Positions 56,592 through 59,800 of a stretch of 64,000 nucleotides of DNA are shown here, in pieces. The notes under the pieces are model-generated. The model saw nothing but the letters and a program-made list of their open reading frames with translations. It did not search any database and was not told the origin of the DNA. The number at the start of each line of letters is the position of its first letter. Within the stretch, counting starts at the first letter, position 1. This DNA is from Ectocarpus siliculosus (lineage: Eukaryota; Sar; Phaeophyceae; Ectocarpales; Ectocarpaceae): the NCBI GenBank assembly GCA_000310025.1, contig FN649736.1, positions 5,385,659-5,449,658 of the forward strand, written 5' to 3'. A program made the position numbers and the translations under genes.

Positions 56592-56832
56592 ATGAAGAAC
56601 ACGGTGTTTGCTGTGGTCGCGGCTGCGGCTGTAGACGGGGCGTCCGCGTCCGGGGGGTTCTTTGGTCCGTTGGCTGGAGGCGGCGGCGCGAGCGGTGCTG
56701 TGGCACCCCGGGGGTCAGGCAAGGCATCACCATCTGAGCCGTCATCAAGGAGCCGATGGTTAGGAGCGAGAGGGGCGCGGGAGGGCGTGGTGGACAGCCT
56801 CTACGCGACGACGGTCCGAGGAGGAGCATCAG
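56592..56832 (+). other. CDC48: Cdc48 exon 1: predicted signal peptide plus transit-peptide-like region
   Basis: The exon encodes [20 protein letters not shown] followed by GGFFGP. This has a basic start, a short hydrophobic core and an ASA cleavage motif, then about 60 residues rich in Gly, Ala, Ser and Arg with few acids. That is the layout of bipartite plastid presequences in algae with secondary red plastids. The residue after ASA is Ser, not the aromatic residue typical of stromal proteins. In diatoms a non-aromatic +1 correlates with retention in the periplastidal compartment. The donor CAG|GTGTGT at 56832 leaves phase 1, exactly what the exon starting at 58338 needs. The join is inferred from phase and splice signals only. 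Confidence 0.6.
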
Positions 56833-59800
56833 GTGTGTAGTGTCTAGTCTGCTGTTTTTTCGCAAACGCGCTCTCCTCTCTACCACCATGTTCAGAAAAT
56901 AGCCGGTTGCATACGTATCATGTGCTGTCTATCGATCATACATATGCTACAGCGTAGGTGTATGTGTGTTGCGGCAAACAGAGGCTGCTGCGATGTATGT
57001 CGGCCGACCTCGCGCCAGCAGTTGTGTGCATTTGAAAGAGTGGGTGGCTGGCCGTAGAAGCAGTGCCTTATGCGTGAGCGTACAGCTTTCCACACGATGA
57101 GGTTCCAAGCGAAATTTAGTTGCACTCACAAGAGCAGGTTGGTGTATGTGCGGCCACGCGGTAAGCTCTGGCGCCTTGCTTCAGGCACGCTATTGTTGGT
57201 GTTGGTCCAGCCAGCAGCCAAGGGCGCAGACATGGAACAACCCACCATGTTCCCTGTGGTCATTTGACCAGTCACAGTCAGACCTAGCTCTTCCAGTTGC
57301 GTCGAGTCGGTGTGCAGATGTGTATTCGTTTGCACACGCTACTACAGTGCAAAAACAGCCCTGTGTACACACTACTGAGGTGTGGAGTCTAACGACGTGA
57401 GTGCAAGATGTTCAACTTGGGCTGCCGCCAGTAACCACCACAACACGATGCGGACAGCCCCACGGACAGCAACCCGCGCGCCGCCTATGCGTGCCAGATC
57501 CTTCGGTGCTACACCCAGCAGTATTAACGACCTGTTGCTGCTACCCACACTAATCATTTGCAAGTCCAGCCCCCACCTTAGAGTGCCCATCGAATGAAAC
57601 ATGGAAAGCAGGATTGCCTGGCCTACAAGTATGGCCTGTATGGCCCAACTGCTGTAAATGTACACAGGAAGAGAACACTGGTGCGCTAACCCGACCCTAT
57701 CTGCGTGCAATGGTCACAGCATGCGGTAGGTGTGCGATTTGTACGTCTGTAGCATGGAATTTGCGCTTATGGCTCGGAAAATGATGTGTTTTGGGCTTGA
57801 CAGCGGCTGCTGTGGCGCATAAAGAACAAACAGGTAGCTTTCCTGCGTAGCGTCAAACGACTGCTGATGCTGTTGAATATACCAACGCATCCCCCTACGG
57901 GTTCTTTGCCATTGCGCCTATGTACGACAGAGCTGGTAGCGGACAATGCTCTTAACGTTTGTGCGTGTACCCATGGTGTGACATCATGGCCAACGTTCAA
58001 AGGGAATCTCCGCAAAATCGCATATGGAATCTCCTGCAAAATTCGCCGAGGCTCGGGGTTTCCTGTCCGCTGCTGCTGTGGACTGCCAGTAGCCCTCTAC
58101 ATAACGGCCTTGGTGTAGACGCTTCTGTTCTCCAGGCATCACAAGCGAGTCCTGGGTCTTTTTTTTTGTGTATCCTCATGTCACTGCCAGGGTGGTTGCG
58201 AAGTCTATGCAGCGACATGCTGTTCTGCCCCCCGACTGCCTAGTACACACAACACAGCAGTTGATCCAAGCCCAACGAACGACATCCGCTTTGTTATGAC
58301 GTTATCGTGGCGTTCGCCTTCTTGGAAATACGATCAGCCGTTTCGGACTACGATGCGGGAGTGGGCGGCAAGAAGAAGAAGAAGAAGAAGAAGGGCAGCA
58401 GCAAGAGACAGGCGCCACCGGCCGACGCCGCCCCCGCGGACAAGAAGGCGATCGCTAAGGCCGCCGCTGCGAAGAACAAGAAGGCCAACGAGAAGAAGGC
58501 AGCGGCCGCCGAAAAGAAGAAGAAGACAGCCTTGTCCTTGCCTGATGACGACGAGGAGGAGATCGACCTCGTGGCCAAGATGGAGGCTGCCCGACGGGCT
58601 ATGCCTAACGCTTGTGTGGTGAGAGGAAAGGGCAAGAAAGTAGAGCCCGGTGCCATGACCTACAAAGGGAGCACGGTCATCAGTGTGTGATGTGTGGAAC
58701 ACTGCTGTGGGGCAGTGAGCCACGGGTACGGGTATTGCTGAAAGTGCAGATGGAAATGCGAGAAACCTAGCTGGAGTATAGAGTGAAATTTGTGTAATGC
58801 AGATGTCAACCATTGGTGGCTGAGAGGGAGGGGAGAGAGAGAGAGGCCTGGCGGATGATGACCAACGCGTCGATTCAGGTAGCGGGAAAGTGACAGGAAA
58901 TGCTGCCGGCGCACTCGTTTTACATGTTACATGTTGTATGCCAGCGGTTCGATAGGCGTTATCCCTCGGCAATCCAAGCGCTTTCAGCGGAGTCCCTTGA
59001 GGGATAAGCACGTCCCAAACTTTCCTGTAAAATGTTGGTTGTTGTAGCACAAGTGTGGTGCTGTGGTACTGAGTACAGCACTGGTGAAGACTGATCCTGC
59101 CAATCTCGAAGTTTCGATGCCGAGGCTCAGAAGTACAATCAATCAACTGTTTTTGACTGACACAGCGACAACGAATTGAAACGTAAACTTGCTTCCCTAT
59201 TTTCGACGGCACAGCACTGACGATAGGGAATGTGGACGTGAACGTAATTTGTAATGTTTGTTTGGGTGGGTGTTTTGGTGCAGGTGGATGATGCCGTGAG
59301 CACGGAGGTGGAGCAGACGGTCGTCAGCCTGAGCGCGGCCAAGATGGACGAGGTGAGAACCAGAAAAAAAAAATTGGTCGACAATGTGAACACCGAATTT
59401 TAACCCTAAGCCAGGTTCAGGGCAAGGTTAAGACGTTAAGACGATCCTCCGTAGCTGGTACTGTAGCTTTGGTACAGAAATGCCAACCTCATGCATAATT
59501 CGTGCATCAGAAAGGTGTTGCTTCGCATGGGCTGTGGCTATATGCTTGGAAGTAATACCGTTGAGACCCCGAAATTAGTTTTATGAGCATAGGCGGGTTG
59601 CAGAAATCCAGACGGAAGACTACCCAAGCGGAGACAGCCTAAAAAGTGCAGGCGATGGCTTCGTCAATTATTTTCTCAGAAGAAACACTGCACGTGTGCA
59701 TGAATCTGGTGGGACAAGTTGGTGTGGACCCAGATGTTGCTACAGTGTGGTAGGTGACGTGCGTTGTTGTGTTGAAGGTAGGCAGGATGCCCTCCAATAG

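What the first reader, a model, noticed from the sequence alone, without database searches (positions are those of the whole stretch)
56592..58618. Cdc48 with a two-part plastid presequence: candidate motor of symbiont-derived import (SELMA)
The sequence shows an extension of about 174 residues on an otherwise canonical Cdc48: a signal-peptide-like start ending ASA|SGG, a Gly/Ser/Arg-rich stretch, then a Lys-rich linker. Algae with secondary red plastids keep a red-alga-derived ERAD-like system (SELMA) that uses its own Cdc48 to pull preproteins across the second-outermost plastid membrane. PPC-resident proteins in diatoms carry a presequence with a non-aromatic +1 residue. This gene fits that description. 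The exon 1-exon 2 join across 1.5 kb is the weak link.
Basis: partly seen in the sequence, partly recalled or inferred. Interest (0 to 1): 0.75.

Follow-up and report, generated by a model that had tools for sequence, protein, structure and literature searches.

The report
Cdc48 with a plastid-import presequence
This alga gene seems to encode a Cdc48 protein-pulling motor carrying an address tag for the complex plastid, one of two such copies beside an untagged host-type Cdc48; it looks like a new example of a machine already described in related algae.

Summary
Exons 56592-56832 and 58338-58618 open a Cdc48 gene of 18 exons (947 aa, hand-built model, all introns GT-AG) that runs past the window. 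About 169 residues (signal-peptide-like start, Gly/Ser/Arg stretch, Lys-rich linker) precede the conserved N domain. The genome holds two more Cdc48 genes. C8 is host-type, with no such extension in the exons found. C241 groups with the window gene, and its signal-peptide-like start lies in one exon with the conserved PNR of the N domain, so the same design recurs without a long doubtful join. The window copy ends LYG (HbYX motif), C241 ends LFG: the published pattern for plastid-bearing heterokonts. Extra derlin, Ufd1 and 20S-proteasome loci fit too.

Best reading: a SELMA-type Cdc48 of the periplastid compartment, a new member of a known kind and one of two candidate motors. Open: no RNA for the exon 1-2 join and a weak exon-2 acceptor; ambiguous cleavage-site signals; C11 is no more similar overall to C241 (64.5%) than to C8 (65.5%), though the two share 39 exclusive residues; red-algal ancestry was not testable, as no red-algal or diatom sequence was reachable.

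The parts
56592..56648 (+). signal-peptide-like start [19 protein letters not shown] (exon 1)
   Evidence: best hydrophobic 9-mer mean 2.71; rule-based, no SignalP. The rule's first allowed cut was after Gly16; the cut after Ala19 (ASA|) is by eye
56649..56832 (+). Gly/Ser/Arg-rich transit-peptide-like stretch (rest of exon 1)
   Evidence: no D/E in its first 25 residues
56833..58337 (+). intron 1 (GT-AG, 1505 bp); strong donor, weak acceptor; not confirmed by RNA
58338..58603 (+). Lys-rich linker (exon 2), includes an (AAG)8 run at 58370-58393
   Evidence: strongly coding by codon score; no in-frame ATG ahead of Met162 (58580)
58604..61645 (+). Cdc48 N domain over the end of exon 2 and exons 3-6 (59284-59352, 60125-60238, 60616-60792, 61496-61645)
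   Evidence: PF02359 CDC48_N E=1e-19 (on an earlier 943-aa model)
61863..63862 (+). D1 ATPase domain, exons 7-11 (61863-62017, 62266-62456, 62784-63058, 63412-63534, 63770-63862)
   Evidence: [20 protein letters not shown] present
63863..64000 (+). intron 11; the gene continues past the window with exons 12-18 (D2 ATPase, C-terminus DDVDDLYG) to C11:5453888 (window coordinate 68230)

Best explanation
The gene encodes a symbiont-type Cdc48 (sCdc48) of a complex red plastid. Its signal peptide would take the precursor into the ER, and the transit-peptide-like part would send it across the second-outermost plastid membrane into the periplastid compartment (PPC). There the N domain would bind Ufd1-Npl4-type cofactors and the D1-D2 ring would use ATP to pull ubiquitinated preproteins through derlin channels (SELMA). 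The genome has two such Cdc48s. The window copy keeps every catalytic motif checked and the C-terminal LYG; the C241 copy has LFG and a His at the second D2 arginine-finger position. Shown: gene model, domains, motifs, three Cdc48 loci, the tail difference, extra derlin, Ufd1 and 20S loci. Inferred: exon 1-2 splicing, import into the PPC, motor role, red-algal origin.
For: 18-exon model with one open frame. CDC48_N plus two AAA domains; passes the TIGR01243 cut-off, 806.7 against 802.65 bits. Host-type Cdc48 on C8: 80.6% identical to Arabidopsis Cdc48A, against 67.2% for the window gene. The C241 paralog carries MGRAPQPLVQLLLLSLAATGAGVGA... and the conserved PNR in one exon. C11 and C241 share 39 residues absent from C8, plant, human and yeast, against at most 8 for C11 and 6 for C241 with any one of those four; their split has 100% of 200 bootstraps. 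Derlin at 4 loci, Ufd1 at 3, with signal-peptide-like ORFs near one divergent copy of each. LHC family: 87 matches. Literature passages: heterokonts usually have two sCdc48s, most such species one with and one without HbYX (PMC5070193); P. tricornutum has sCdc48-1 and -2 (PMC6610115).
Against: No transcript evidence for exon 1-2. Exon-2 acceptor ranks 5th from the bottom of 47. Exon-1 codon score does not stand out. Overall identity C11-C241 (64.5%) is no higher than C11-C8 (65.5%), and lower in the N domain (43.5% against 53.4%). C241 falls below the TIGR01243 cut-off (749.8). Cleavage reading is mixed. The tree has six taxa, is unrooted, has long branches and no red-algal or diatom sequence. 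C11 and C241 share only 2 intron positions of 17 and 19. The looser signal screen also hit near the conserved-looking C7 Ufd1, so it is not specific. Npl4 gave one weak match. SELMA is not universal in ochrophytes: its major parts are reported missing in Nannochloropsis.
Confidence: 0.83

Rival explanations
1. The window Cdc48 sits in the periplastid compartment but mainly serves protein quality control: its HbYX tail docks on a periplastid 20S proteasome (or holds PUB-domain cofactors), while the C241 copy (LFG tail) is the import motor.
For: LYG tail in the window gene, LFG in C241. Proteasome family at 22 loci by hand count, one HslV-like by eye, where one 20S needs 14; a second beta-1 carries a signal-peptide-like stretch just before Thr1. 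Division of labour proposed in PMC5070193 (section 16).
Against: The D1 pore residue is Leu in the window gene (SKLSG) and Val in C241 (GKVAG), neither aromatic; in yeast it was an aromatic residue at this place (M288Y) whose lethality was linked to the 20S (PMC5511170, passages). The tail also binds cofactors (yeast Ufd2), so HbYX need not mean proteasome. C241 has His at the place of human p97 R638, which could weaken it as a motor.
Confidence: 0.3
2. Exon 1 is not part of the gene: the protein starts at Met162 or another unseen ATG and is an extra cytosolic or nuclear Cdc48; the Lys-rich stretch would be untranslated or a nuclear signal.
For: Weak acceptor at 58338; exon 1 does not stand out in codon score; the Lys-rich stretch recalls a nuclear signal (yeast Cdc48 has RRKKK from residue 28).
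Against: Exon 2 is strongly coding upstream of Met162 and has no in-frame ATG there, so an upstream exon is needed; the one qualifying ATG of 39 has the right phase; the paralog has the same design in one exon; a minus-strand ORF starts at 56351, 240 bp from the exon-1 ATG, as a shared promoter would give.
Confidence: 0.09
3. The protein is targeted to the plastid stroma or stays in the ER lumen rather than the periplastid compartment.
For: No acidic residue in the first 25 positions after ASA| and FFGPL near the cut, described as plastid-like in the ASAFind 2.0 paper (passages).
Against: +1 Ser if cut at ASA|SGG; the relative C241, if cut at GVGA|VG, has +1 Val and Asp at +4, periplastid-like (both cuts by eye); no ubiquitin-Cdc48 system is known to me in stroma or ER lumen (recalled).
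Confidence: 0.08

Closest known systems
sCdc48 (symbiont-type Cdc48 of SELMA), e.g. Phaeodactylum tricornutum sCdc48-1 / sCdc48-2
   Same: Two presequence-bearing copies beside a host Cdc48; N-D1-D2 architecture; [quoted passage not shown]
   Different: No diatom sequence was available for direct comparison. The Lys-rich linker of the window copy is not in C241; whether diatoms have one was not checked.
Cytosolic Cdc48/p97 (ERAD)
   Same: Same domains, catalytic motifs and LYG-type tail.
   Different: The window gene has a presequence; 65-67% identity to C8, plant, human and yeast over N-D1, against 79-81% between C8 and human or plant; small insertion before EAEYC; 1 intron position shared with C8 of 11 compared.

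Membership tests
SELMA sCdc48 | Cdc48 architecture N-D1-D2 | tested here: met
SELMA sCdc48 | Catalytic motifs present in D1 and D2 | tested here: met
   GPPGCGKT at 398 and 671, FIDE/FFDE at 455/728, RRFGR 511, RPGR 788
SELMA sCdc48 | Separate host Cdc48 in the same genome | tested here: met
   (C8 gene; its first exon was not found and part of its D2 reads N)
SELMA sCdc48 | N-terminal signal peptide followed by transit-peptide-like region | tested here: inconclusive
   Met by a home-made rule and mirrored in C241; SignalP/HECTAR not available and no RNA support for the exon join
SELMA sCdc48 | Periplastid-type cleavage site (non-aromatic +1) | tested here: inconclusive
   +1 Ser for the cut ASA|S, stroma-like features nearby; cut site itself uncertain
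SELMA sCdc48 | Groups with sCdc48s inside or beside red-algal Cdc48 in a tree | not testable with these tools
   No red-algal or diatom sequence reached; only the C11+C241 split from C8/plant/human/yeast was shown
[quoted passage not shown]
   against PMC5070193
SELMA sCdc48 | Other SELMA parts present (second derlin, Ufd1, Npl4) | tested here: inconclusive
   Derlin 4 loci, Ufd1 3 loci; signal-like ORFs near divergent copies but also near a conserved-looking one; Npl4 one weak match; E1, E2, ubiquitin not searched
SELMA sCdc48 | Location in the periplastid compartment and need for import | not testable with these tools
   Needs GFP fusion and gene removal

The most novel reading that the evidence does not exclude
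The two periplastid Cdc48s have split the work: the window copy (LYG tail) feeds a periplastid 20S proteasome, whose beta-1 subunit would be matured by signal peptidase cutting just before Thr1, while the C241 copy (LFG tail, His in place of the second D2 arginine finger) is a specialised import motor with an altered ATP cycle.
Probability: 0.2. Interest if true: 0.6.

Novelty: new member of a known kind. Interest (0 to 1): 0.32.

Why it matters
One genome shows a host-type Cdc48 and two presequence-bearing Cdc48s, one with an HbYX tail and one without, together with extra 20S loci. That makes the open question of why plastid-bearing heterokonts keep two sCdc48s (raised in PMC5070193) testable by gene removal and tail swaps in an organism of this kind.

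Tried and rejected
Red-algal affinity: of three scans, one of viral contigs brought 6 loci at 37-42% identity, which I did not examine further; one of genome contigs and a second of viral contigs found no relative. The last two used only two short peptide patterns each, so they were not sensitive. One more genome-contig scan and six viral-contig scans were allowed and not used. Codon score as proof of exon 1: it does not stand out. Intron positions as a link between the two sCdc48s: 2 shared of 17 and 19, no use. Pfam on the minus-strand ORF beside exon 1 and on four long window ORFs: no match. Rfam at gathering scores: none. tRNA: none. Three SELMA papers (PMC3536273, PMC3045029, PMC3101018) are not held, so nothing of them was seen. 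A search for SELMA, Ectocarpus and Cdc48 together returned one paper, on Nannochloropsis.

Limits: the species was not identified, and that it is a heterokont is inference. Exon borders of all three Cdc48 genes were chosen by hand for frame, GT-AG and similarity. Which derlin or Ufd1 copy is symbiont-type is judged by eye from single exons. The count of 22 proteasome loci is by hand from the 38 rows, taking neighbouring rows as one gene (one search's rounding printed 23 because it split a C10 gene). Solved-chain checks were made for both beta-1 copies and one beta-6 copy; other subunit names and the HslV label are recalled motifs. Searches used earlier models (775 aa core; 943 aa) that lacked four residues at the exon 16-17 join.

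Full report
WHAT IS THERE. Joined with sixteen further exons chosen by hand, seven of them beyond the end of the window, they give one open frame of 947 residues; all 17 introns are GT-AG. The gene ends at C11:5453888. The protein has a CDC48_N domain and two AAA domains (on a model four residues shorter) and passes NCBI's CDC48 model, 806.7 bits against a cut-off of 802.65. Walker A, Walker B and arginine-finger motifs are present in both rings. The C-terminus is DDVDDLYG. The conserved N domain begins at residue 170, so the extension is about 169 residues: [19 protein letters not shown], then a Gly/Ser/Arg-rich stretch to residue 80, then a Lys-rich linker that contains an (AAG)8 run.

THE WEAK LINK. 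Exon 2 is strongly coding (none of 1173 control windows scores as high) and its open frame holds no ATG before Met162, so some upstream exon must supply the start. A rule combining a signal-peptide-like start, an open frame of at least 60 residues and a strong donor picks 1 of 39 ATGs in 56353-58338, the proposed one; on both strands of window 1-54000 it picks 3 of 1793, none of them in the needed phase. I set the rule after seeing the exon. The donor is strong (41st of 47 from the bottom) and the acceptor weak (5th of 47), but it is the only listed acceptor above zero in the right phase. Exon 1 does not stand out by codon use: -0.109, matched by 10% of control windows; exon 1 of C241 scores -0.055. 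A minus-strand ORF starts at 56351, 240 bp from the exon-1 ATG, which fits a shared promoter; it has no Pfam match. No RNA was available.

TWO MORE CDC48 GENES. A search of the genome (189 Mb, 492 contigs) finds, besides many other AAA loci, two further Cdc48 genes. The C8 gene is host-type: 80.6% identical to Arabidopsis Cdc48A and 78.9% to human over N-D1 and the start of D2, against 67.2% and 65.5% for the window gene. In C8, KKDSATAILDPSKKRS precedes PNR and no signal-like extension is seen in the exons modelled; its first exon was not found and the rest of its D2 reads N. The C241 gene has 20 exons and 932 residues, all introns GT-AG. Its first exon reads MGRAPQPLVQLLLLSLAATGAGVGAVGIDSSSS... 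and runs on to NFPN, which completes to the conserved PNR across a phase-matched intron. So the paralog has a signal-peptide-like start and the beginning of the Cdc48 N domain in one exon. This is the best independent support for the same design in the window gene.

RELATIONSHIPS. In an alignment of C11, C241, C8, Arabidopsis, human and yeast, C11 and C241 share 39 residues found in none of the other four; with any one of those four C11 shares at most 8 and C241 at most 6 (among the four themselves the largest is 15, C8 with Arabidopsis). The split C11+C241 against the rest has 100% of 200 bootstraps. Against this, plain identity does not pair them: C11-C241 is 64.5% and C11-C8 65.5%, and in the N domain 43.5% and 53.4%; C241 is the longer branch (0.40 against 0.17) and falls below the CDC48 model's cut-off. 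The tree is small and unrooted, so it shows that these two are not the host type, not that they are red-algal. Intron positions: C11 and C8 share 1 of 11, C241 and C8 share 0, C11 and C241 share 2 of 17 and 19; they set all three apart and do not tie the pair together. Three scans of public collections brought no sequence recognised as red-algal or diatom: one gave 6 unexamined loci at 37-42% identity, two gave none.

THE TAILS AND THE SECOND RING. The window gene ends LYG (HbYX), C241 ends LFG. In D2, C241 reads TRPGHLDQ where the window gene and human p97 (R638 by the chain numbering) have Arg. The D1 pore residue is Leu in the window gene and Val in C241. PMC5070193 (passages and section 16) reports that plastid-bearing heterokonts usually have two sCdc48s, that most such species have one with and one without HbYX, and asks whether one imports and the other feeds a periplastid 20S proteasome. 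The table in PMC6610115 (passages) lists sCdc48-1 and sCdc48-2 for Phaeodactylum, and reports the major SELMA parts absent from Nannochloropsis. PMC7617431 and PMC3971594 (passages) describe SELMA Cdc48s as grouping with red-algal ones; I could not repeat that test.

COMPANIONS. The genome has derlin matches at four loci and Ufd1 at three. By eye the C26 and C31 derlins look ER-type; only the N-terminus of C26 was seen, without a signal. Near the C12 derlin and the divergent C16 Ufd1 lie signal-peptide-like ORFs, not tied to them by RNA; the same loose screen also hit near the conserved-looking C7 Ufd1, so it is weak evidence. Npl4 gave one weak match. The proteasome family is found at 22 loci by hand count, one HslV-like by eye, where one 20S needs 14. 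Beta-1 is present twice; the copy at C11:3666683 reads MLSAFAAAALALLVAAAGLVDA directly before TTLVAARFDGG, whose first Thr aligns with residue 1 of mature beta-1 chains. Light-harvesting proteins give 87 matches, so this is most likely a photosynthetic alga. Its species was not determined.

COMPARTMENT. By the published description (PMC12136025, passages), stromal proteins have Phe or a similar residue at +1 and almost no acidic residues in the first 15 positions, while periplastid proteins lack that +1 and have acidic residues throughout. The window gene is mixed: +1 Ser if cut at ASA|SGG, but no acidic residue in 25 and FF at +4/+5. C241 is periplastid-like if cut at GVGA|VG: +1 Val, Asp at +4, Glu at +18. 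Both cuts were chosen by eye; my rule's first allowed cuts were after residues 16 and 18.

VERDICT. The SELMA reading is the best one, but the window gene is one of two candidates, its exact role is open, and red-algal descent, splicing and location were not testable here. It is a new member of a known kind.

Noticed in passing
L073 (G000:C11:3666683-3666835, minus strand): 20S proteasome beta-1 paralog whose ORF has a signal-peptide-like stretch ending VDA directly before the Thr aligned with mature Thr1; a second, host-like beta-1 lies on C19.
   Followed up: partly
L051-L080: Proteasome family at 22 loci by hand count (one HslV-like) where 14 are expected; by recalled motifs beta-1, 2, 3, 5 and 6 seem to be present twice.
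   Followed up: partly
G000:C241:518547-518702: Second sCdc48 has His at the place of human p97 R638 in the D2 arginine-finger motif (RPGHLDQ).
   Followed up: no
L048:3343-3736 (intron 1 of the C241 gene): Inverted repeat of about 394 bp, 88% self-complementary, like a foldback element.
   Followed up: no
window 58370-58393: (AAG)8 run coding eight Lys in exon 2; might vary in length between individuals.
   Followed up: no
window 55941-56351 (minus strand): Divergent ORF starting 240 bp from the exon-1 ATG, basic and low-complexity, no Pfam match; may share a promoter region with the Cdc48 gene.
   Followed up: partly
window 34857-35438 (plus strand): ORF that by eye recalls a dynein heavy chain segment; Pfam gave no match.
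   Followed up: partly
G000:C92, C232, C488 and C16:100k-282k: Dense arrays of light-harvesting protein matches, many with identical scores.
   Followed up: no
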